Shown piece by piece: positions 1,185 through 11,727 of a stretch of DNA of 12,063 nucleotides. A model generated the notes under the pieces. The model saw only the letters and a list, made by a program, of their open reading frames with translations. It was not told the DNA's origin and searched no databases. How positions within the stretch are numbered: position 1 is the stretch's first letter; each line of letters begins with the position of its first letter. The translations under genes and the position numbers were made by a program. The stretch is from Sulfuricella sp. (GTDB taxonomy: Bacteria > Pseudomonadota > Gammaproteobacteria > Burkholderiales > Sulfuricellaceae), in assembly GCA_019911785.1 (NCBI GenBank), contig JAIOJM010000268.1, positions 1 through 12,063 on the forward strand. Direction: 5' to 3'.

Positions 1185-1420
1185 CTAAAGCCCCTGTGGT
1201 CTTGTAGCGAGGGTTTCCTGGGTCAACGACCAGAGCGCAGGGGTGTTGCCACCCAAACGGCTTACCTTAGTCTTGCCAGGCGGTGATTGCGTTGCCGCAA
1301 CCGGTTCGGAGTCTTCCGCCCCTACCTTTTTCTTGGTAATTCCGCACCGCGTCTTCTCTTTCCGAACACATTTTCCAGCCAGCAATTGCCGGACACCGCG
1401 CATGGTAATCACCTTTGCCG
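1185..1420 (-). ncRNA. Predicted omega RNA (reRNA) overlapping the tnpB 3' end
   Basis: TnpB guide RNAs are known to be processed from the 3' part of the element and to run through the right end into flanking DNA. The region here is unusually long for a tnpB tail and ends in a hairpin-like sequence by the stop codon. If so, the guide would be the bases just below 1170, inside the 796-1182 gene. Positions are inferred from the family, not from a covariance match. Confidence 0.35.
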
Positions 1421-2630
1421 CGTTGTGATCAGCATGGTCAGTATTCCCGCAGCTTAGGCAGACGAATTCGGCTTGTGATACCCGATTGTCCTGGTGAACG
1501 TGGCCGCATTCGGCACATTCCTGCGAAGAATAAAACGGTGGAACTTCGATAACCAGCTTGCCTTGACGGCGAGCTTTGTACTGCAAAAACACTTTCGTCT
1601 GTCCCCATGTCGAGGCCAGAATGTATTTGTTTAGACCGGACTTGGCGGCAGCACCATTCTTGATCCAGCGGCCTTGCTCATCCTGTTTTGGCTTGACCTT
1701 CTTGGTCATGTTCTTGACCTTGAGCGCTTCGAACACGAACAGTTTGTATCGCGGATCGCTGGCAAGCGTGTGACTGGTTTTGTGAGCCACATCCCGGCGC
1801 ACGTCGGCACCATAGCACTGGTAATGTGCCACACGACGTTTGGCCTTGACCCAGCCTGACGAACCCTTGGTGCGGCGTGCCAGACGCCGTTGCCAGCGTT
1901 TCTTGTGCCGCTCTTGAGCAAGCAGGCGTTGTTTCTGGATCTTCGAGAAGTCGAATTGCTGCTTATCACTCCCGGCCAAGGGCAAAGCCACGCCTCGATC
2001 AAGACCGACTGTCATCTTGCACAGTTCGTCTTCGTTGAACTGCATCAGCCATGCCGCGGTATCCTTGTCGGTTGGCCCAGGGATGCTGTCGTCGTAGTTG
2101 AATGAGACGTGCCAGCGCCCGGCGTGAATACTGATATGCAGCGATGCCGGAGGCTGGTATTCCTTGTGCGCCTTGAATGCCAGAACCCCTACCGGGAATT
2201 TCTTGGTGCCAAGGTGAAGCTGGTGCTCGGTGATTTCGCCTGTTGCGGCATCCACAACGGGACTGAACTTGAACACTTCTGAAGTGAGCCACACCGACTG
2301 TTTGCCGATCTTCTTGTGAATAACAGGGCGACCGCCCAGCTTGGAGAAATACCGGCTATAGGCTTGTTTCCACAGCGCTGCGCCATTGCGCAGCAGGACA
2401 CTCGGTACTTCGGACAGGTAGGGCGTGAGTTCGGTTTTGAACTGGCTGTATTGTTGGTCTATCGGCGCATACCGCCCGACGTGCTGTAAAGACTTCCGCG
2501 CAAAGCGACGAAAATACTGGTCTTCGCGCACCTTGGAATTGTAGATATTCCGCTGGCAGCCGATCCACTGCAACAGGGTTTGTTCCTGTGCAGGAGTGGG
2601 GTAACAACGAAAGCGATTGCCGATTTGCAT
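1185..2630 (-). CDS. tnpB: TnpB RNA-guided nuclease (IS605 OrfB family transposon protein)
   Basis: The 481-residue protein starts with the family's typical RFRCYPTPAQEQ...CQRNIYN segment (residues 6-31). All three RuvC acidic residues are in place: D211 in VGLDRG, E301 in FEALKVKNM and D401 in DHADHNAAK. Between the last two sits the zinc finger, C372xxC375 and C391xxC394. The nuclease is thus predicted to be intact. Proteins of this family cut DNA under guidance of an omega RNA transcribed from the element's 3' end and help retain the element. The tail after the RuvC-III site (about 75 residues, basic then low-complexity) is longer than usual and is encoded in the region expected to double as omega RNA. 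No clear ribosome binding site precedes the ATG, which is common in this family. The gene lies in the same orientation as the PRTRC operon. Confidence 0.92.
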   Translation of the reverse strand: MQIGNRFRCYPTPAQEQTLLQWIGCQRNIYNSKVREDQYFRRFARKSLQHVGRYAPIDQQYSQFKTELTPYLSEVPSVLLRNGAALWKQAYSRYFSKLGGRPVIHKKIGKQSVWLTSEVFKFSPVVDAATGEITEHQLHLGTKKFPVGVLAFKAHKEYQPPASLHISIHAGRWHVSFNYDDSIPGPTDKDTAAWLMQFNEDELCKMTVGLDRGVALPLAGSDKQQFDFSKIQKQRLLAQERHKKRWQRRLARRTKGSSGWVKAKRRVAHYQCYGADVRRDVAHKTSHTLASDPRYKLFVFEALKVKNMTKKVKPKQDEQGRWIKNGAAAKSGLNKYILASTWGQTKVFLQYKARRQGKLVIEVPPFYSSQECAECGHVHQDNRVSQAEFVCLSCGNTDHADHNAAKVITMRGVRQLLAGKCVRKEKTRCGITKKKVGAEDSEPVAATQSPPGKTKVSRLGGNTPALWSLTQETLATRPQGL

Positions 2631-2764: not shown

Positions 2765-3568
2765 CTACGCAGCCTTCCGGCTTTCTTGCTCAACCGCCGC
2801 CGGACGGATCAACCGCCAAGCCTCCGGGCTGACCGGGATGGACGATGCACGTCCACTTTCCAGATTGAAAAACACACCATTCCAACCGATATGTCCATTC
2901 CGCAAGGCTTCCGCAAGCCATGCGAAAATCCACGATGCCGCCATCGCGTTGGTTCCGATGCCTTGCCGCATGATGCTTTCCCGCGCAGAGCAGGAAGGCG
3001 TGTTGTCGTCATCCCCGGCGATAATCTCAGGGTAAAGCTCGGTCACAAGGGGCAGGCGCATGGGGTCATCGGCAATACGCTTGCCGTACTGACCCACGAT
3101 CACTTGGGCCGACACAGCATCGTTGCCAGAGTCGATCCACCAGACCGTGTTATGGGCATCACGAACGAAGGCGTCTATTTCACGCCGCGCCGCCTTGCTG
3201 TCCACGCATCCGATGATGAAATCGGCCTCATAGCTGCGAATCGAGTCGCGGGTGAAGCGTTCCGGCCTGTCCTGCCAGGACAAGCCATGTGCCACGTTTA
3301 TGCGATTCACCATCACCGATGCCTTGTTATGGCCAACATCAGGAAGGAAGAAGTTTTGCCGCAGGCAGTTATGTTCTGCCACGGTGTCATCGTCCCAAAC
3401 CGAAACCTCCAGCCCGTGCGGGTGACCCAACTCAATGAGGCACTTTGACAGGGACGGCAGGCGCGGGAGCAACTGCGACCCGGTGCCGCCGCAGCCGATC
3501 ACATGAATCTTGATCGGGCGGTGCAGAATGTCGTCTGGAAGGATATGCAGGTTAGCGGGTTCGGTCAT
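2765..3568 (-). CDS. PRTRC system ThiF family protein (E1-like adenylyltransferase)
   Basis: The 267-residue protein carries the Rossmann nucleotide-binding loop GCGGTG (residues 25-30). This is followed by the E1/MoeB/ThiF signature, V-W-D-D-D-T-V then N67, R70 and Q71, K82, and the CVDS strand with D123. A cysteine in TPSCSAR (C193) sits where the catalytic or crossover-loop cysteine is expected. Such enzymes adenylate the C-terminal glycine of a ubiquitin-like protein, here most likely protein C. The start ATG overlaps the protein A stop by four bases (ATGA at 3565-3568), indicating translational coupling. The PRTRC call rests on this gene order together with the length and the family's C-terminal region (WNGVFFNLESGRASSIPVSPEAW). 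The operon is interrupted by an insertion sequence about 95 bp downstream. Confidence 0.92.
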   Translation of the reverse strand: MTEPANLHILPDDILHRPIKIHVIGCGGTGSQLLPRLPSLSKCLIELGHPHGLEVSVWDDDTVAEHNCLRQNFFLPDVGHNKASVMVNRINVAHGLSWQDRPERFTRDSIRSYEADFIIGCVDSKAARREIDAFVRDAHNTVWWIDSGNDAVSAQVIVGQYGKRIADDPMRLPLVTELYPEIIAGDDDNTPSCSARESIMRQGIGTNAMAASWIFAWLAEALRNGHIGWNGVFFNLESGRASSIPVSPEAWRLIRPAAVEQESRKAA

Positions 3569-4224
3569 GATTGGTTCTCCGTTCCGCCATCAGTAGCGGT
3601 AGGACTATGATCTAATATTGACCTCACAAATTCTGATAAATCTATCGAGAGTCCCATCATGGACAGCCGCATCGCAACGGAAGGCGTAGGCCGATCCAGA
3701 TTGCCCACCACAAAGGCCAGCTTGGCATCGTCTGTGCGGTCGTCCTTATCGTCCGTGCCGCTGAAAAAGGCGGGGAAAGCGCCGTGTGAGTGGCAATCGA
3801 CCACAGGGAGGCAAGAGGGCGTGGCATCAGGGCGGCGATACTGGATATGTTCGCATCCACGCGAGATGACATGAGGCTCAACGTAGCCAATGACACCTTG
3901 GTCGGGGTCGAAAGTGAGCCATGCCGCATGTTCGTCAGGGGCAAGCTCGGCGGCGCGTCCGATGAAACGGCGCAACCCGGCAGCAAGGGCGCGGCGGTGC
4001 AGATTGATCTTAAACAGCGCGGGAACTTGTCCATAAGGCATCTTGACGGCAACCTCCGACACTTTGGAGATTACGTGCAGCCAAGGTCGCAGCACCTCAA
4101 CGTGCACTCCATCCTCTGCCATCAGAAAACGATGTCCATCGCTGTCCAACAGGGTCAAGCGTTCATAGCGTGGACAGCAGACCGTAGGGCAGACCGCCTG
4201 TAGAACACAGTCAAGCTGGTTCAT
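3565..4224 (-). CDS. PRTRC system protein A (JAB/JAMM metalloprotease-like)
   Basis: The 219-residue protein contains a full JAMM metal-binding signature near its centre: H145-S-H147, seven residues, S155, two residues, D158 (in DCHSHGAFPAFFSGTD). This motif coordinates zinc in isopeptidases of the RPN11 and bacterial JAB type. A conserved glutamate is expected upstream; E98 and E116 are candidates. In the PRTRC pathway it is expected to trim or remove the ubiquitin-like protein C, but no substrate is known. It is coupled on both sides by 4-bp ATGA overlaps, with protein B upstream (4221-4224) and ThiF downstream (3565-3568). The N-terminal 90 residues form a mixed, Cys-containing domain (C6, C12, C16, C17) of unknown role. 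Confidence 0.9.
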   Translation of the reverse strand: MNQLDCVLQAVCPTVCCPRYERLTLLDSDGHRFLMAEDGVHVEVLRPWLHVISKVSEVAVKMPYGQVPALFKINLHRRALAAGLRRFIGRAAELAPDEHAAWLTFDPDQGVIGYVEPHVISRGCEHIQYRRPDATPSCLPVVDCHSHGAFPAFFSGTDDKDDRTDDAKLAFVVGNLDRPTPSVAMRLSMMGLSIDLSEFVRSILDHSPTATDGGTENQS

Positions 4225-4988
4225 CGGTCGGGCATCCTGTCGGCATCCAGTTTGTCTACCAGCAGGCCGAGTGTCATGCCCTTAATGGGGCGCAGGACAC
4301 GCTCTGGAAACTTGCGGAACTTGCCGTCCAGCAGATCACGGGAAAATGCGTGGATTCCGCCTTTGTAGTTTACTGGTTTGGGGTGGTTGGGGTGGCTGAA
4401 CGCGCTCTCCCAAAAGCCGCGCTCCCACCTCGCCACGGAATCCGCCATCGTGCTGTCGGGTAGCGGCATGGAACCCGTACAAACGGTTCCAGAATCCCAT
4501 ACGTTCATCAGCGGGGCATGGCAGAGCGGCGTGGATGCGTCAGGGCGATTTTCACCCTTGACCGCAAAAACCCACATTTTCTGGCCTTTGGCCGCGAAGA
4601 TCAGTCCGGGGGTCAGACCCTCCCCGTTTCGCTGACCTACCGCGATATGCCGATCTTCCTCTGTAACTCGCGTGTTGAAGAAGTAGGTGCGCTTGCCGGG
4701 GCGTTGCCACCAGACAACGTGTTCAGGCCCAACGGACAAGATGGTGTCGGGCATAACACCGGAGCGGGTGCGATTCGACTCCAGAAGCCCGGCGGCGACC
4801 TGCCGCAAGCTGTCACGGTCTGCCGGACGACCAGCCCGGATGATCGGGGCAGCACCGGGAGCGCAATCAACCGGGTGGATGGTGGCATAGCGAAGCTGCT
4901 CGTAGCCGCCGCCAGAACCATACAACAGGATCGCGGTTTGCAGCGTCACGCTGCGGGCATCAAGGTCGTGTGTTACGAAGCTCATCAT
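4221..4988 (-). CDS. PRTRC system protein B (prokaryotic E2-like family)
   Basis: I place the start at the ATG at 4988 because AAGGA lies five bases before it; the frame also opens at a TTG at 5006 that has no such site. The 255-residue product overlaps the end of protein F by 29 bp and ends in an ATGA overlap with protein A. Protein B belongs to a family named in Pfam as a prokaryotic E2-like group (Prok-E2_D). The segment PLCHAPLMNVWDSGTVCTGSMPLP (residues 154-177, described here by its key residues C156, N162, C170 and P175) is the most conserved-looking part. C170 is the best candidate for an acceptor cysteine, an inference from position and context only. Expected role: accept the Ub-like protein from ThiF. 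Confidence 0.88.
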   Translation of the reverse strand: MMSFVTHDLDARSVTLQTAILLYGSGGGYEQLRYATIHPVDCAPGAAPIIRAGRPADRDSLRQVAAGLLESNRTRSGVMPDTILSVGPEHVVWWQRPGKRTYFFNTRVTEEDRHIAVGQRNGEGLTPGLIFAAKGQKMWVFAVKGENRPDASTPLCHAPLMNVWDSGTVCTGSMPLPDSTMADSVARWERGFWESAFSHPNHPKPVNYKGGIHAFSRDLLDGKFRKFPERVLRPIKGMTLGLLVDKLDADRMPDR

Positions 4989-6000
4989 GAAGTTCCTTGG
5001 CTGCAATTAGCGCCTCGTCCAAGGCGCGGAGGACTTGTCCAGTATGACGAATGCGCGGGAGCGATTCTTGAATACCTGCCACATCGGGGCGGAACATGAC
5101 ACATCCGACCCACGGCGGATATTCGCCGCGCTCGTCCTCGTACCGATGATGGTCATCAATGATCTGATTGAACTGCCCATCTTCATCCCACTCGATCACC
5201 ACAGGCGGCTCGTTGGGATAAGAAGCCTCCCCATATTCATTTTCTTCTTCGGGGGTATCCAGAAACACGCCCTGAATGGAATTGATCTGGTGCAATTTCA
5301 GAAGGGCGGACATCAGGCGGCCAACAGGACGGTCAGAAAGACGCTCGGCGTGAGCCGCAAAGTCATCAGGCTCAACGTGTGGCAGTTCTGGCGCATAGCC
5401 GTTAAAAGCCCATTCAGGAACGCCATCGAACAGCACGTCACGGCGCGGCACGTCAGCGTCCTCGTCGCCCATTTCCTCGATCACCAAATCTTCGTTGTCC
5501 TCACCCATCCAGTAAATATTTTGAGCCATCTCATAGATGCCGGAGGGGGTATGAGGGCAGCCGAAGCGCACTAGCACCTGATCCAGATAGCCCAAGGCCG
5601 TGCGGCCCAAGCCGGGGGACTCGTTCTCGATGGATTCAAATGCGCGTCCAACTGTAATCCACTCAGGGCGGTCGGCATTGATCGCCACGCCGACTAGCGG
5701 CTCCTTATCTGCGCTGGTGAATTCCTCGTCGCCAGAGGTATTGGGAAGGATCAGTCTGGCGTAGGCGGAAATCAGGCGGAACTCGTAATCGTCCCCAACA
5801 GCGCGTTGCCAACCTTTCTCGATCAGCACCCGGATGGCGCTTGCACTCATGCGCGTCCGGCGCAGACCAGCCAGGTCATCGTCAGCGATCATTCCCATTT
5901 GGCTCATGGCCAGCACCAGCCGCAAGTGACGCTCTCCTGCGGGGGCGAACTCGATGATCGCCGGGACTTCCGGCGCGAAGGTGGGCAGGGTCAGAAGCAT
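4960..6000 (-). CDS. PRTRC system protein F
   Basis: The 346-residue protein lies where PRTRC protein F is expected, between the C region and B. It is strongly acidic in its middle and C-terminal parts (runs such as GEDNEDLVIEEMGDEDAD at about 177-194, and PEEENEYGE). There are no transmembrane segments, signal peptide or recognisable catalytic motif. The N-terminal 80 residues look helical, and residues 40-80 (LAGLRRTRMSASAIRVLIEKGW) could be a winged-helix-like stretch. The ATG at 6000 has no good ribosome binding site. It overlaps the preceding small gene by 10 bp, so translation is probably coupled. Family assignment rests on position, size and acidic composition; molecular function is unknown. 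Confidence 0.78.
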   Translation of the reverse strand: MLLTLPTFAPEVPAIIEFAPAGERHLRLVLAMSQMGMIADDDLAGLRRTRMSASAIRVLIEKGWQRAVGDDYEFRLISAYARLILPNTSGDEEFTSADKEPLVGVAINADRPEWITVGRAFESIENESPGLGRTALGYLDQVLVRFGCPHTPSGIYEMAQNIYWMGEDNEDLVIEEMGDEDADVPRRDVLFDGVPEWAFNGYAPELPHVEPDDFAAHAERLSDRPVGRLMSALLKLHQINSIQGVFLDTPEEENEYGEASYPNEPPVVIEWDEDGQFNQIIDDHHRYEDERGEYPPWVGCVMFRPDVAGIQESLPRIRHTGQVLRALDEALIAAKELHDELRNTRP

Positions 6001-6212
6001 GGCGGCACAAACTCAGGGGAGGGCGCTACGATCACTTTGGCGCGATTGTGAGCTTGTGCAAGCTCCCGCACGACACCTGCCACGTCACGCTCGGCAGGGC
6101 CGTAGCGAAGGCCGCCGATGCCGCGAGAACGCTTTGCCGAAGGTTTTGCCTGCCCCTTCACCATGTCACTCAGAACGGCCTCGATCATTACCTCAAAGGC
6201 ATCGCGCTTCAT
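5991..6212 (-). CDS. Small basic hypothetical protein between PRTRC C and F (73 aa)
   Basis: The start ATG at 6212 lies three bases after the protein C stop, with AAGGG about seven bases upstream inside the C gene. The 3' end overlaps the protein F start by 10 bp. The tight packing argues that it is a real gene. The product begins with a predicted amphipathic helix (MKRDAFEVMIEAVLSDMVKG), followed by a basic, Ser/Lys/Arg-rich linker (QAKPSAKRSRGIGG) and a second helix (ERDVAGVVRELAQAHNRAKV). The basic linker is compatible with nucleic-acid or acidic-partner binding, for example the acidic protein F, but this is speculation. I do not recognise a family. Confidence 0.7.
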   Translation of the reverse strand: MKRDAFEVMIEAVLSDMVKGQAKPSAKRSRGIGGLRYGPAERDVAGVVRELAQAHNRAKVIVAPSPEFVPPCF

Positions 6213-6215
6213 GTT

Positions 6216-6425
6216 TCAGCCCTTGGTTCCAACGCTGCGCTTGAATTCCCAAATTTGCGCATCACCCTCGAACTGACCGCCTTCAACTGCGGCATTAACG
6301 AGGTCGCCATGAATCGCAGAATAGAACGTCTTGACCTGTTCAGGGGTGAGTTGTGGATCAGGATCAGGCAAAATTCGACCATTGAATAGAAAGCGCCGAA
6401 CTGTGGGGGTTGCGGTCAAAGCCAT
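6216..6425 (-). CDS. PRTRC system protein C (ubiquitin-like protein)
   Basis: The 69-residue protein is close to ubiquitin in size. It has the family layout: an N-terminal strand (PTVRRFLFNG), LPDPDPQLTPEQVKTFYSAI with a helix following, then DLVNAAVEGG and a last strand (GDAQIWEFKRSVGTKG). Pfam names this family Prok_Ub. The chain ends in a single glycine (VGTKG), so no proteolytic trimming would be needed before adenylation by ThiF. The start has an excellent ribosome binding site (AAGGAG, six bases before the ATG). This suggests high expression, as expected for a modifier protein. It follows protein E by 56 bp and is followed after three bases by the 73-residue gene. Confidence 0.92.
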   Translation of the reverse strand: MALTATPTVRRFLFNGRILPDPDPQLTPEQVKTFYSAIHGDLVNAAVEGGQFEGDAQIWEFKRSVGTKG

Positions 6426-6481
6426 GAAAATCTCCTTATTCTCAAAGTAGGTGAAAAAATTCTCGTAAAGTGAAAAACGGC

Positions 6482-7126
6482 TCAGAACAGGTCTTGAGTC
6501 ACCTCTGCTGTCGTGACCACACTGGCGGCAGTCGCCGGGGCCGGAGCAGCCTCGGGAGCAGCGGCAACCGGGGCTGGCGCTGCCGTGACCACCTCGTCCT
6601 TCACAGGGACAGGAACCGCCGCTACCACGTCATCGACCGGAGCCGGTGCCGTGGCTAGAACCGCATCCAGTTCTTCGCCCGTTTCTTCATTTTCACCACC
6701 AGTACCGCAGCAACCTGTCTCCGGCAGATCGTCCAGCAGGGACGGCGTGGTGGGCTTGGCCGCCACGACCTTCGGCGGGGTAGGGGTACTGGCCTTGCCC
6801 AGAGTCGGCTTCTTGGATTTTTCGACAGCCTTCTTCTTGGCTTCATCGGCAGCCGTTTTGGCATCTGCTTCCGCCGCTGCCAGCGCCTCGCTCAAGGAAG
6901 AGGTCACGGTGCTGCGGGTGGTGAGCCATTGGGACAGGGCATCGGCCAGTTCGGCATCCAGTTCCTCTGGCATACATGTGCAGGAAAATGGGGTGACAAA
7001 GGCCGAATCTTCCTTGTCGCTCGTCTTGACCGGCTCGATATAGACCCTGATGCGGCCATCTTTTGCCGAGGACAACAGGATATGGATGCTGCGTTCCGCC
7101 AAAAGCGGTTGAAGTGCTTTGAACAT
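6482..7126 (-). CDS. PRTRC system protein E
   Basis: The start is the ATG at 7126, preceded by AGGAG at eight bases; the frame is open further upstream but only through the clamp gene. The 214-residue product has an N-terminal domain (residues 2-70, FKALQPLLAERSIHILLSS to SQWL). Next comes an Ala/Lys/Glu-rich likely coiled-coil or single helix (about 76-107), then a long Ala/Pro/Val-rich, probably disordered tail with a Cys-Cys in TGCCGTGG (139-140). The extreme C-terminus is TQDLF, which resembles the short motifs by which proteins bind bacterial sliding clamps. The gene just upstream encodes such a clamp. The molecular role of protein E is not known. Confidence 0.85.
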   Translation of the reverse strand: MFKALQPLLAERSIHILLSSAKDGRIRVYIEPVKTSDKEDSAFVTPFSCTCMPEELDAELADALSQWLTTRSTVTSSLSEALAAAEADAKTAADEAKKKAVEKSKKPTLGKASTPTPPKVVAAKPTTPSLLDDLPETGCCGTGGENEETGEELDAVLATAPAPVDDVVAAVPVPVKDEVVTAAPAPVAAAPEAAPAPATAASVVTTAEVTQDLF

Positions 7127-7208: not shown

Positions 7209-8333
7209 TTAGGAACGCAGGGGCATGACAACGGCGAGGGGATATTCCATGTCCTTTGGACGCACGGTAATTGCCCCGGCAGAGCCGGAATACCCGATGC
7301 GGATGCCTTCGGCAGAGGAGCCGATGGTATTGACCGCATCGGACAGGAAGTCGATGTTGAAGCCGATTTCGCAGGGCGTGTTCGAGGTGGATACAGAGTC
7401 AACCTCGCAGCGTCCGGCATCGCCCCGCGAAATGGCGGTCAGACTATTGGTGAAAGTGATTTCAACCTTCTTCTTGAGAACGTCCTTGTTCTGGCCGTCC
7501 TCAATGGTCGCACCAAGCATGGCGAGGGCATCCCGCAAGCGGTTGGTGGCGATGTCCACGGTATCTTTGGTGGCAGGGATAACACCGCGCCAATTTGGAA
7601 ACGCGCCGTCAATACCGTTGGCCAGCAGCACCGTGGAATCCTCGAAGGTGAACTGCACGTCTTTGGCTCCGATGGTCAGGGTCACGTTGCCGCCTTGAGC
7701 CAGCAGCTTCTTGGCGAGGAGCGCGGATTTGCGCGGCACGATGACGTTGCGCGGAGCCAGCGTATCGGCTCCCTGAATCGGTTCATGGGACACGACCATG
7801 CGGCTGCCGTCCGTACTGACCAGCCACAAGCCATCCTTGTCGAAACTGAACAGAGCACCATTGAGGAATACGCGCAGATCGGCGCTGCTCATCGAACTGG
7901 ATACATCCCCAATCATTTCAGACAGGCGATGTGCCGCCATCGTAATGGACATGCGCTCCCCCTTGGCCTGAACCATGCGGGGGTAGTCGGCGGCAGCCAG
8001 AGTCGGTAGACGGAAACGAGAACGACCGGATTTGACCAGCAGCGTACCCTTGCCCTCGACGCTGATTTCAATGTCCTGTTTATCCGGCACCGCCCGAATC
8101 AGGTCGTGGAAACGGCGCACGTCAACGGCGATTTCCCCGCCAGACTTGATCTCGCAGGGAGATAGCGCCCGCGCCAACATCCCGGTATCACTGCATAGCA
8201 GGGAGAGTTGCCCGCTATTCGTTGTTTTGAGTAACACCATGCCAAGCATGGGGATCGTGCCGCGAGTATCGGCAGCGCCAGCTACCAGCGCGAGGTGAGA
8301 AACGAGCCGTTCTTTGGTTGTACTGATCTGCAT
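7209..8333 (-). CDS. DNA polymerase III beta subunit homologue (sliding clamp)
   Basis: The 374-residue protein matches bacterial beta clamps in length (about 366) and shows their three-domain order: ADTRGTIPMLGMVLL in domain 1, LPTLAAADYPRM before domain 2, then DGSRMVVSHEPI, VIVPRKSALLAKKLL and the end YPLAVVMPLRS. The chromosomal consensus C-terminal end is MPMRL, so this copy has a changed tip (MPLRS), part of the peptide-binding area. Clamps encircle DNA and tether polymerases and repair factors. The start at 8333 has AGGAG six bases upstream. It is the first gene of the operon, 82 bp ahead of PRTRC E. An accessory clamp beside a plasmid-maintenance cassette suggests use in element replication, but which partners it recruits is unknown. 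The symbol dnaN is withheld because this is probably not the housekeeping copy. Confidence 0.93.
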   Translation of the reverse strand: MQISTTKERLVSHLALVAGAADTRGTIPMLGMVLLKTTNSGQLSLLCSDTGMLARALSPCEIKSGGEIAVDVRRFHDLIRAVPDKQDIEISVEGKGTLLVKSGRSRFRLPTLAAADYPRMVQAKGERMSITMAAHRLSEMIGDVSSSMSSADLRVFLNGALFSFDKDGLWLVSTDGSRMVVSHEPIQGADTLAPRNVIVPRKSALLAKKLLAQGGNVTLTIGAKDVQFTFEDSTVLLANGIDGAFPNWRGVIPATKDTVDIATNRLRDALAMLGATIEDGQNKDVLKKKVEITFTNSLTAISRGDAGRCEVDSVSTSNTPCEIGFNIDFLSDAVNTIGSSAEGIRIGYSGSAGAITVRPKDMEYPLAVVMPLRS

Positions 8334-9080: not shown

Positions 9081-11678
9081 TTAGGCCACCCTTACCAAGT
9101 GATCACGCGCTGGCCGCGCGGCAAGCCAAGCGTAGAGGCTGGGTGCATCAGCGCGAACCTCGCTCAGCGCCTCGGCAGCTTGAGCCCTCCAAGCTAGGTC
9201 GCCAGGCTCCCGGAAGCTACGCCTGAGTTGGCGCACCGTTACCAGGGCTGTTTCCGCCCACTCGCGGAACTCGCCAAGATCCCAGTGTGCTACCCGCCCG
9301 AGATGGGGCATAGCACCATCCTTAGCCTTCTTCGCCGGGGTCACGAGGACCGGCTGGATCGATGCGCCCGCTGACGCCGGGACATGTTCCCGCATCCAGT
9401 CTGGATGCGAAGCAGCCTGTCTGGCCTTAGTGGCGTCGATGACTGTGGTATCGCCCTTGGCGTTCGCGTGATCCTCGAACACAAGTGCGATGCCGCCCAC
9501 GATCCACCACGGATCCGGCGACGCATCACTTTCACGCTTTCCTGCCGAGAAGCCCAAGTGCTCGCCGAGCAGCACTTGAGCCTGCTCGAATCTGTCGCCA
9601 TCCTGGAGCCCCTCACGAATCTCCCTCTCACGCGCCGAGAACCCCCGGTTGTGCAACGTACCAAGCTTGACGAGCTGTGCCTCAAGTTGCTCCACCTGAA
9701 GCATGACGTTAGTCTTATCCTGATCTTCGGCGCTCAGAGTAGTGGCTGCATCGCCCCGCGCCAGGGAGATGAGCCACGGGATACCGGTGGCAGCTTCCTT
9801 GGCCTTTCGATATTGGGCGCGTGCATGTACGTCGAAACCGGCCTCCCCGTCTGCCGCCGCCTGTTCTGCGGCCGCGCCGGCTAGGTAGTGCCATAGTGCC
9901 CTATAGCCGCGCAGCCCACTGTCGGTCAGTCCGCCCAGAATCTCTCGGGCCGATTCGTACGCTTTGGCATAGTCCTCATTCCACATGGACGTCTGCCAGG
10001 CAATCTCGTGGGCAACAACCCCCTCCAGTTGATCCATGGCCGGAAACTCCGCTTGAGTAACAGCTTCGCGCATTTCTAGAATACCCTGGTTGGCTTCCTC
10101 CCAGCCTTGGTCATGCTCAAGGAAGGTGTCGAAGTTATCGAGAATTTCCTTCGCATTGACCTGAGTGGACTGATCGATACCGAATTCGAGTTCCGCCTGC
10201 AACTCAGGGTGAAAATACGAGCGACGCTTGCGATCGGTGAGGTAGGCCGGCAAGTCCTCGCCCGTCACGACGACAGCAGAGTAGTCGTTGAGACCCCGGG
10301 TGCACCGGCCGATAGCCTGAAGCACCCGCGTCTGCACACGTTCGTTGAACAGCATGCTAGCGCCCATGCGATTCATCAGGAAGCGCTCCTGAAGGTTGGT
10401 CGCTCGGGGCAGACCCTCAACAAACAAAAGCCGACAGTCGTCTTCAGGAAAGTCAATGCCGTCGTAGCGGTTAGCAATCACGGCGACGGCTTGCGCGGAC
10501 TTTGTGAACTCCGCCTTGCTGCTCTCAAGATCCGCCGCGGAGAAGACCGGGTATTTGAGTTCCTTGATCACATCCTCAGTAATCTCATCAGCGTCGGCCT
10601 TACTTGGCGTCAGTACCAAGCTGCGCCCCGCTTTGCCCATCAGCTGTCGACGCAGATTCAGGGTGTCCTCCTCATTGAGCGACTTCTCGGGGAAAATGAA
10701 GAAGCGTCGACCGATGCCCTGCCGATCCCAACCTTCTGGAATAGGCAGCCGCTTGATGTTGGATCGCCCGGTCAATCGCTCAAGGTCGCCTCCAGCTCCC
10801 AGGGTGGCCGACATGAAGATACGCTGCGTCGCATTGGCGAACGGCCCATGCGACCAAGTCGGAGGGATGAGGGGACGCAGCAGCACCTCCGAGGAAGACA
10901 CGTAGAGCTGGCATCCGCGAACGTGATCCGCCAGCATCCGCCAGACAAACCGCTGGTTGGCCTCATGGATGTTCTCTGAGATGGCAGCACGAAGCTCGTC
11001 AGCGATCTCGATTAGCTTGTGGGTCGGAATTTTGTCGACCCAGCTTGCGTCGTCAACGCTTTGCCAGCTCCCGGTCAACCGCGTGAAGTTACCTTCGGAG
11101 AGAACTCCTTTAAGCACACCTGCTACCGCCTTGAATAAGGTCTTATCGCTCTCCTCGAAGCTGCTGATCCGCATCGTCCATTGGCTGGCTATGTAGTTCT
11201 CCGCAGCGTGCGCATCGTCGACGATGATGACATCCGGGTTCTCGAAGAACGGATTGACGTTGAACAAGCTATTGTAGGTCGTCACAGCCACACGCTCGCC
11301 GTCCATATAGGCAGTCTTGGCCTCCGGAGTGTAGTTCTTGACCGTGCCGGTGAAGGCTTCTACCGTCAGCCCATATTTCGCCGACGCTTCTTCAGCCACC
11401 TGGTTCACGAGTTGCCTCGTCGGACACAGGTAGACGACACGCTCGTGGAACTTTCGACGGCGCCATTCGGCCAGGAGGAGCCCGACCAGCGTCTTTCCGC
11501 TACCCGTCGGCAGTTGCAATGCCACATCGGACGCCTTGAGCGCATGGGCCACGTAGTTCCGTAGCACTTGACCTTGATGGTCGAATAAGCTGGCATGCTT
11601 GCGGCGAGGAAGGTCACGAAATAGTCGATCCGGGCTTTCCGGCACGGTGGCGTGGGACGTTGGTTTTTTGAAAGCCAT
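9081..11678 (-). CDS. Large SF2 helicase, XPD/DinG-like (865 aa)
   Basis: The start is the ATG at 11678 with AAGG nine bases upstream; a GTG at 11717 is in frame but lies inside the likely promoter. Helicase motifs are complete: Walker A PTGSGKT (57-63), Ia CPTRQLVNQ (85-93), II VDDAH (153-157), III MSATLG (289-294), V ANRYDGIDFPEDD (402-414) and VI QAIGRCTRG (454-462). Motif II DDAH and the GIDFP and GLP segments resemble the XPD/DinG branch, but the four iron-sulfur cysteines of XPD are absent between Ia and II. Residues about 500-865 form a long, mostly helical extension I do not recognise. It should translocate on or remodel nucleic acid using ATP. The gene stands alone, bracketed by inverted repeats. 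A defence or repair role is possible but unproven. Confidence 0.85.
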   Translation of the reverse strand: MAFKKPTSHATVPESPDRLFRDLPRRKHASLFDHQGQVLRNYVAHALKASDVALQLPTGSGKTLVGLLLAEWRRRKFHERVVYLCPTRQLVNQVAEEASAKYGLTVEAFTGTVKNYTPEAKTAYMDGERVAVTTYNSLFNVNPFFENPDVIIVDDAHAAENYIASQWTMRISSFEESDKTLFKAVAGVLKGVLSEGNFTRLTGSWQSVDDASWVDKIPTHKLIEIADELRAAISENIHEANQRFVWRMLADHVRGCQLYVSSSEVLLRPLIPPTWSHGPFANATQRIFMSATLGAGGDLERLTGRSNIKRLPIPEGWDRQGIGRRFFIFPEKSLNEEDTLNLRRQLMGKAGRSLVLTPSKADADEITEDVIKELKYPVFSAADLESSKAEFTKSAQAVAVIANRYDGIDFPEDDCRLLFVEGLPRATNLQERFLMNRMGASMLFNERVQTRVLQAIGRCTRGLNDYSAVVVTGEDLPAYLTDRKRRSYFHPELQAELEFGIDQSTQVNAKEILDNFDTFLEHDQGWEEANQGILEMREAVTQAEFPAMDQLEGVVAHEIAWQTSMWNEDYAKAYESAREILGGLTDSGLRGYRALWHYLAGAAAEQAAADGEAGFDVHARAQYRKAKEAATGIPWLISLARGDAATTLSAEDQDKTNVMLQVEQLEAQLVKLGTLHNRGFSAREREIREGLQDGDRFEQAQVLLGEHLGFSAGKRESDASPDPWWIVGGIALVFEDHANAKGDTTVIDATKARQAASHPDWMREHVPASAGASIQPVLVTPAKKAKDGAMPHLGRVAHWDLGEFREWAETALVTVRQLRRSFREPGDLAWRAQAAEALSEVRADAPSLYAWLAARPARDHLVRVA

Positions 11679-11697
11679 GAGGGATAACCTTGTAGAA

Positions 11698-11727
11698 TAT
11701 GCTCGGTGAGACCGCACAGTATGTCAA
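11698..11727 (-). promoter_or_regulatory. Likely promoter of the helicase gene
   Basis: On the minus strand a perfect TTGACA (11722-11727) is followed after 18 bp by AGCATA (11698-11703), or after 20 bp by CATATT (11696-11701). A separate TATAAT lies at 11737-11742. If TTGACA is used, transcription starts below the GTG at 11717, supporting the ATG at 11678. Confidence 0.4.

What the first reader, a model, noticed from the sequence alone, without database searches (positions are those of the whole stretch)
2765..7126. Complete ubiquitin-like conjugation set in one PRTRC operon
A Ub-like protein with a terminal glycine (C), an E1-like enzyme with intact nucleotide-binding residues (ThiF), an E2-like protein (B) and a JAMM peptidase with all visible ligands (A) lie in one tightly coupled operon with E, F and a small extra gene. 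The families are known, but to my knowledge what PRTRC modifies and why plasmids keep it is not settled. All catalytic residues I can check are intact, so the system is probably active.
Basis: partly seen in the sequence, partly recalled or inferred. Interest (0 to 1): 0.7.

Follow-up and report, generated by a model that had tools for sequence, protein, structure and literature searches.

The report
Clamp-linked ubiquitin-like operon on mobile element
A bacterial DNA segment, probably from a mobile element, carries a complete, intact-looking ubiquitin-like protein-tagging kit, of a kind predicted in 2006, directly behind a gene for a DNA sliding clamp, which hints that the unknown target of the tag may be at the replication fork.

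Summary
Window 2765-7126 (minus strand) encodes PRTRC E, C, a small orphan X, F, B, A and ThiF in one tightly coupled run; each named gene passes its NCBIfam cut-off. The set is not new: Iyer et al. 2006 described it as operon type 6d.
Comparing 245 distinct PRTRC loci gave two things that I did not find in print. (1) JAMM protein A tracks a tail on C: all 114 C proteins with residues beyond the conserved Lys-Gly lie in loci with A; of 72 C proteins in loci where I found no A, none has a clear tail (69 end at Gly, two in Ala, one is ambiguous). A is best read as the C-maturing peptidase; the window's C needs no maturation, so there A would only deconjugate. (2) E tails are enriched in beta-clamp-motif-like ends (26 of 138 representatives against 0.6 in shuffles, none with the full consensus), and dnaN lies directly before E in 20 of 245 loci.
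Clamp targeting is inference, not shown. A new variant of a known kind.

The parts
7209..8333 (-). dnaN, beta sliding clamp, 374 aa; probable first gene of the operon
   Evidence: TIGR00663 173.4 bits over cut-off 137.65, three DNA_pol3_beta Pfam domains; 10 of 17 peptide-pocket residues identical to E. coli DnaN (pocket positions recalled)
6482..7126 (-). PRTRC E, 214 aa: conserved N-terminal part plus long Ala/Pro/Glu-rich tail
   Evidence: TIGR03741 63.3 bits over 37.95; Shine-Dalgarno-like AAAGGAG before ATG
6485..6499 (-). E C-terminal TQDLF, beta-clamp-binding-motif-like end (weak match)
   Evidence: sequence; family-level enrichment of LF ends
6216..6425 (-). PRTRC C, Ub-like modifier, 69 aa, ends exactly at ...VGTKG
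   Evidence: TIGR03738 76.3 over 45.95, Prok_Ub 7e-17, model
6219..6221 (-). C-terminal Gly69 codon; no precursor tail in this member
5991..6212 (-). X, orphan 73-aa basic protein ending PPCF
   Evidence: no NCBIfam or Pfam hit; same place in 4 other DnaN-first loci; 2 proteins found in a word-based search of 5.8 billion
4960..6000 (-). PRTRC F, 346 aa, helical family of unknown role
   Evidence: TIGR03742 59.6 over 58.4; alpha-hel2 8e-10
4221..4985 (-). PRTRC B, E2-like protein, 254 aa (ATG 4985; alternatives ATG 4988, TTG 5006)
   Evidence: TIGR03737 209.5 over 131.45; Prok-E2_D 1e-48; model and VIA-align
4479..4481 (-). B predicted catalytic Cys169 codon (His198 at 4392-4394)
   Evidence: Cys invariant in 77 of 77 rows
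3565..4224 (-). PRTRC A, JAB-N (DUF2016) plus JAMM peptidase, 219 aa
   Evidence: TIGR03735 174.2 over 101.8; Prok-JAB 7e-11
3751..3792 (-). JAMM H145 to D158 ligand stretch of A (Glu98 at 3931-3933)
   Evidence: sequence; motif in 157 of 159 A-bearing loci
2765..3568 (-). PRTRC ThiF, E1-like adenylating enzyme, 267 aa
   Evidence: TIGR03736 247.7 over 144.75; profile's best solved relatives are NEDD8 E1 catalytic subunits at 1.1e-9, over residues 11-131
2990..2992 (-). ThiF Cys193 codon in PSCS, predicted thioester cysteine
   Evidence: invariant in 33 of 33 rows

Best explanation
dnaN-E-C-X-F-B-A-ThiF is a mobile-element operon for reversible Ub-like tagging coupled to a sliding clamp. ThiF adenylates the C-terminal Gly69 of C and takes it as a thioester on Cys193; B takes it on Cys169 and passes it to lysines of a target; A (JAMM zinc peptidase) cuts after the Lys-Gly end of C. 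In relatives whose C carries a tail, A first matures C; in the window C is born mature, so A would only remove the tag. E holds the machinery at DNA-loaded clamps through its disordered tail and LF-type C-terminus, so that the clamp, or proteins riding on it or at the element's fork, would be the target. Shown here by sequence and comparison: gene identities, intact residues, gene coupling, A/tail association, E end-motif enrichment, dnaN adjacency. Inferred: every chemical step, the E-clamp contact and the target.
For: Families and residues. ThiF profile closer to NEDD8/ubiquitin E1s (1.1e-9) than to ThiF (2e-7) or MoeB (4e-5). A/tail: 114 tailed C, all in loci with A; of 72 C in loci without A, 69 end at Gly, two end TKA, one (L017) ends TGTLG. 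On a ThiF+B FastTree, about 77% of the tail-less branch length is A-less, yet all 4-5 tail gains on constant-A branches lie in A-bearing lineages (2-3 more on branches where A is gained too); P 0.0007 to 0.0025 over four tie-breaking choices. Tails are mostly unrelated to each other (27 BLAST clusters among 82 tails of 30 aa or more). Precedent: BilC cuts BilA to free its Gly (passages of PMC11354881). E ends: LF within the last 25 residues in 55 of 138 representatives against 5.7 in shuffles; at least 3 of Q,L,L,F in 26 against 0.6 (maximum 4 in 1000); F, B, A, ThiF and ParB do not exceed the shuffle range on these measures. 33 of 138 end in [LIM]F, 12 one residue before the end. Published beta-motif: C-terminal QLxLF, weak consensus (passages of PMC4549789). 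dnaN in 27 of 245 loci, directly before E in 20; in 19 of 141 viral PRTRC loci against 0 of 30 viral ThiF loci without B. In ten genomes that I picked, three because their locus has dnaN, a second dnaN occurs only in those three and at that locus.
Against: No conjugate, thioester or interaction has been observed. Independent-pairs sign tests for A against tail did not reach 0.05 (no contrary pair, too few informative ones). 9 of the 72 A-less loci have ThiF within 1.5 kb of a locus end, so a displaced A could be missed. No E has the full QLxLF and Gln at position 1 stands in only 4 of 57 LF ends; the window's TQDLF matches only L4 and F5 (plus D3 of a stricter QL[SD]LF that I recall). On the looser [LIM]F measure the ends of A also exceed shuffles (42 of 93 against 20.1, maximum 39). 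E ends are only marginally commoner in DnaN-linked loci (13 of 23 against 38 of 115, P=0.056). Most PRTRC loci have no dnaN, and 49 have parB in that slot. Several PRTRC DnaNs keep few pocket residues, and their tree backbone is unresolved. B and C fold matches are of middling Z. Two A-less C end in Ala.
Confidence: 0.4

Rival explanations
1. A Ub-like conjugation system whose target is the partition machinery (ParB) or other maintenance proteins; dnaN and the E tail are incidental.
For: PRTRC ParB lies directly before E in 49 of 245 loci, more often than dnaN (20); two papers mention PRTRC among partition functions (passages).
Against: No ParB hit in the window; in 89 of 141 viral loci E is the first gene that my profiles recognise, with neither parB nor dnaN before it.
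Confidence: 0.2
2. An anti-phage or inter-element warfare system like Bil or type II CBASS, tagging invader or immune proteins.
For: Same toolbox (Ubl, E1, E2, JAMM) as Bil (PMC11354881 passages); presence on many viral contigs with very variable C tails would fit an arms race.
Against: No effector or nucleotidyltransferase among the ten window proteins scanned; recognised neighbours in other loci are dnaN and parB, but I looked only for those. PADLOC was not run.
Confidence: 0.2
3. A sulfur-carrier pathway (ThiS/MoaD type): C becomes a thiocarboxylate, not a protein tag.
For: ThiF and MoeB are among the relatives of the E1; small modifier with C-terminal Gly.
Against: An E2-like protein with invariant Cys and a JAMM peptidase are present; C ends in a single Lys-Gly, not Gly-Gly; no metabolic gene among the ten window proteins scanned; ThiF profile scores E1s above MoeB.
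Confidence: 0.05
4. A decayed, inactive relic kept by hitch-hiking.
For: No expression data.
Against: All genes open, ligands and nucleophiles intact; the four closest loci, with ThiF 65-74% identical, keep the same gene order.
Confidence: 0.05

Closest known systems
PRTRC cassette (NCBIfam TIGR03735-TIGR03742) / operon type 6d of Iyer, Burroughs, Aravind 2006
   Same: Ub-like C with C-terminal Gly, E2-like B with Cys and downstream His, JAB with JAB-N, E1-like ThiF, helical protein; order E-C-F-B-A-ThiF
   Different: dnaN instead of parB in front; orphan X between C and F, seen in 5 of 245 loci
Azospira pAZI09 (NZ_AP021845) and Sulfuricystis pSTJ1 (NZ_AP018719) plasmid loci
   Same: dnaN-E-C-X-F-B-A-ThiF; ThiF 68% and 65% identical
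   Different: E ends TAELF instead of TQDLF
Bil (BilABCD) antiviral ubiquitin-like system
   Same: Ubl, E2, JAMM and E1; JAMM matures the Ubl (PMC11354881 passages)
   Different: BilA has two Ubl domains and BilD an added inactive adenylation domain (same passages); four genes, so no E, F, X, dnaN or parB
Type II CBASS Cap2/Cap3
   Same: E1-like/JAB logic; Cap2 appears among PDB relatives of ThiF
   Different: No separate Ubl, the cGAS-like enzyme is what is conjugated (recalled; of PMC10097602 I saw listings with the start of the abstract only)
PCNA ubiquitin/SUMO tagging (recalled)
   Same: Proposed analogy only: a Ub-like tag meeting a sliding clamp
   Different: Not shown to be homologous as a pathway; no conjugate shown here

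Membership tests
PRTRC cassette | PRTRC A, B, C, E, F and ThiF above curated cut-offs | tested here: met
   all six over NCBIfam cut-off, F by 1.2 bits
PRTRC cassette | ParB family protein in the cassette (name-giving) | tested here: inconclusive
   no hit in the 12-kb window with my ParB profile; no genome held to look further; many PRTRC loci lack it within reach
Ub-like modifier (beta-grasp, free C-terminal Gly) | beta-grasp fold | tested here: inconclusive
Ub-like modifier (beta-grasp, free C-terminal Gly) | exposed C-terminal Gly | tested here: met
   ends Lys-Gly-stop
E1-like activating enzyme | nucleotide-site residues and a conserved Cys | tested here: met
   G25, G27, G28, G30, D59, N67, R70, Q71, K82, D123, C193 invariant in 33 rows; activity not testable; the PDB alignments stop before C193
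E2 conjugating enzyme | UBC fold with catalytic Cys | tested here: inconclusive
JAMM peptidase | Glu, HxH, SxxD ligands | tested here: met
   E98, H145, H147, S155, D158; Prok-JAB 7e-11
beta-clamp-binding protein (E) | C-terminal QLxLF motif | tested here: not met
   window TQDLF keeps L4 and F5 only; no E representative holds the full motif. 'Works like' is left open by the enrichment
Bil system | two-domain Ubl BilA with BilB, BilC, BilD | tested here: not met
   C is one 69-aa domain of the PRTRC family; Bil features from passages
ThiS/MoaD sulfur carrier | Gly-Gly end and metabolic partner genes (recalled) | tested here: not met
   Lys-Gly end; no such gene among the ten window proteins scanned

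The most novel reading that the evidence does not exclude
PRTRC is a bacterial counterpart of PCNA tagging: a Ub-like system that docks on DNA sliding clamps through the C-terminus of E and conjugates C to the clamp (or, where parB replaces dnaN, to the ParB clamp) to steer replication or segregation of plasmids and temperate phages, with A both maturing and removing the tag, and with phage C proteins carrying exchangeable tails that A releases as separate peptides.
Probability: 0.2. Interest if true: 0.88.

Novelty: new variant of a known kind. Interest (0 to 1): 0.58.

Why it matters
Bacterial Ub-like conjugation is described in defence (Bil; CBASS), but I found no known substrate for the PRTRC version, which is carried by many plasmids (378 PLSDB records match the window ThiF, not all of them need be PRTRC) and viral contigs (141 distinct loci). 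The window's arrangement names a concrete candidate, the clamp encoded next to it, and the comparison gives three cheap tests: does A cut after Lys-Gly, does the E end bind the clamp, and is the clamp tagged. If the clamp is the target, sliding-clamp tagging by Ub-like proteins would exist in bacteria as well as eukaryotes.

Tried and rejected
Considered and set aside: that the set is a new discovery (Iyer 2006 type 6d describes it); that X is a known gene (the last search works by shared words and length, so distant relatives could be missed); that PRTRC-linked DnaNs are clearly one lineage or clearly many (backbone unresolved); that E ends depend on a neighbouring dnaN (P=0.056); that the A/tail association is settled by independent pairs (not significant). 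A first tree test counted losses as well as gains (12 changes in A-bearing, none in A-less lineages, P=0.0006); losses cannot happen where there is no tail, so I use the gains-only version. B had no Foldseek match at E<=0.001 and no PDB sequence relative under E 1; F had none under E 0.55; absence is not evidence of a new fold. Several literature hits for 'PRTRC' are, by their titles, Rhizobium tropici papers that match the plasmid name pRtrCIAT899, as seen in one. PADLOC and PHROGs were not run; E, F and ThiF were not folded (two structure jobs, spent on B and C). Scans with the Aeromonas and Virgibacillus ThiF alone gave no confirmed relative.

Limits of the counts: they rest on my own HMMs with loose thresholds. 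Of 368 sequences, 245 loci were kept after requiring ThiF and B within 6 kb and removing identical ThiF ends; C was recognised in 222 and E (with a stop) in 184 of them; the others were dropped from those counts. A was called within about 4 kb. The end position of C was taken as the Lys-Gly-like pair nearest to the profile's end, so that tails start at the same Gly partly by construction. Each alignment scan kept the 80 best-ranked loci, not a random sample. The genome tallies include the centre genomes G005 and G007, which were chosen because they carry PRTRC.
Full report
Observation. The minus strand of window 2765-7126 encodes ThiF, A, B, F, X, C and E (listed by rising coordinate), confirmed by profile search: all six named PRTRC families pass their curated NCBIfam cut-offs, F only just, and Pfam places C in Prok_Ub, B in Prok-E2_D, A in DUF2016 plus Prok-JAB, ThiF in ThiF, F in alpha-hel2. 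Spacings computed from the ORF coordinates run from 56 nt to overlaps of 4-29 nt. Directly upstream, on the same strand and 82 nt from E, lies a three-domain dnaN (7209-8333). The scan reported no terminator-like site between them, and E has a plausible ribosome-binding site. I therefore treat dnaN as the probable first gene; co-transcription is not shown.

What it belongs to. Iyer et al. 2006 (PMC1779556; section 14 and passages read) describe operon type 6d: JAB with an N-terminal JAB-N domain, E1-like protein, a small Ub-like protein with a highly conserved C-terminal glycine, a helical protein, and an E2-like protein with a conserved Cys and a downstream His. The window fits each point. 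tblastn of the window ThiF matches 378 of 72,556 PLSDB records, 354 of them over at least 80% of the query (the weakest are annotated only as ThiF family). The window's own arrangement is rarer: dnaN-E-C-X-F-B-A-ThiF was found in Azospira pAZI09, Sulfuricystis pSTJ1 and two MAG contigs. X, 73 aa, has no family and two homologues in the protein search. No genome is held for the window, so that it is a mobile element is inferred from these relatives and from the cassette.

What A does. From 368 sequences I kept 245 distinct loci with ThiF and B within 6 kb: 141 viral, 89 genome, 13 plasmid, one isolated phage, the window. C was recognised in 222. In 114 of them residues follow the conserved Lys-Gly; all 114 loci have A. 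Of the 72 C in loci without A, 69 end at the Gly, two end ...TKA, and one (L017) ends TGTLG and is ambiguous. 36 C without tail, the window's among them, lie in loci with A. Nine of the 72 A-less loci have ThiF within 1.5 kb of a locus end. Tails of 30 aa or more (82) fall into 27 BLAST clusters at E<=1e-3. In the first set of viral loci the Ub-like part before the tail ends RRAVGTKG with few exceptions. On a ThiF+B FastTree about 77% of the tail-less branch length is A-less, but all 4-5 tail gains on branches of constant A lie in A-bearing lineages, and 2-3 more coincide with a gain of A: P 0.0007 to 0.0025 over four tie-breaking choices. Independent-pair sign tests found no contrary pair but too few informative ones. 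The simplest reading is that A matures C, as BilC does for BilA (review PMC11354881, passages). Because the window's C is already mature, A there should act as a deconjugase.

Where it might act. E proteins consist of a conserved N-terminal part and a low-complexity tail; the window's ends TQDLF. Among 138 representatives (of 184 E), 55 have LF in the last 25 residues against 5.7 in shuffles, and 26 match at least three of Q, L, L, F of the published beta-binding consensus QLxLF against 0.6 (maximum 4 in 1000 shuffles); F, B, A, ThiF and ParB stay within the shuffle range or below it. On the looser [LIM]F measure A too exceeds shuffles (42 of 93 against 20.1), so that measure alone is not specific to E. 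TLDLF is the commonest E form, in 13 representatives. The consensus is taken from PMC4549789 (passages), which stresses its C-terminal place in transposases. Against this: no E has the full consensus and Gln stands in 4 of 57 LF ends. dnaN lies in 27 of 245 loci, in 20 of them directly before E; parB lies directly before E in 49. Viral PRTRC loci have dnaN in 19 of 141 cases, viral ThiF loci without B in 0 of 30. Among ten genomes that I picked, three of them because their locus has dnaN, a second dnaN occurs only in those three (G001, G002, G007), at the contig places of their PRTRC loci; the G007 copy is partial. The window DnaN is identical to E. coli DnaN at 10 of 17 peptide-pocket positions (pocket list recalled); several other PRTRC DnaNs keep fewer. 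Together these point to a clamp-docked system; they do not show one.

Distribution. PRTRC_B was found in 3 of 321 genomes of one class (2 over cut-off) and 12 of 200 of another (11 over cut-off); both tallies include the centre genome, chosen for its PRTRC locus, so without it 2 of 320 and 11 of 199. The system is frequent among the IMG/VR loci that the ThiF scans returned. In four such loci that I read by eye, without a family search, the module lies between DnaB- or primase-like genes and an integrase or recombinase, with a repressor-like gene in three, as in temperate phages. Among 50,697 phage records only five match the window ThiF, and only Burkholderia phage BgVeeders33 closely (39% identity over 87%).

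Novelty. My searches for prior reports were in an open-licence library without preprints. In their listings and the passages read I saw no report of the A/tail association in PRTRC, of phage C tails, of E as a possible clamp binder, or of dnaN-PRTRC linkage; subscription papers (for example further reviews by the authors of the 2006 paper, recalled) could not be checked.

Noticed in passing
window 1185-2630, minus strand: Stand-alone TnpB (guided_TnpB 210 bits) just downstream of ThiF; no TnpA among the ten window proteins scanned.
   Followed up: no
window 9081-11717, minus strand: 878-aa DEAD/Helicase_C_2 protein upstream of dnaN that reaches no NCBIfam cut-off.
   Followed up: no
L015-L094 (viral contigs): Most of these contigs carry E-C-F-B-A-ThiF (61 of 80 with exactly that call string); C is often a Ub-like domain followed by one of many unrelated tails after RRAVGTKG.
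   Followed up: partly
L218 and L278: C proteins ending ...VGTKA in A-less, DnaN-linked viral loci: the modifier lacks the terminal Gly.
   Followed up: no
L290-L302 (viral contigs of about 54 to 340 kb): ThiF 28-41% identical to a Virgibacillus plasmid copy on large contigs; Bacillus phage vB_BauM_KLEB27-3 has a ThiF that matches the window's.
   Followed up: no
L105, L141, L125, L150, L169: A or B called twice inside one PRTRC locus, perhaps split ORFs.
   Followed up: no
window 5991-6212 and L001, L002: X ends in PPCF in the three members that I read, an unexplained conserved C-terminal Cys-Phe.
   Followed up: partly
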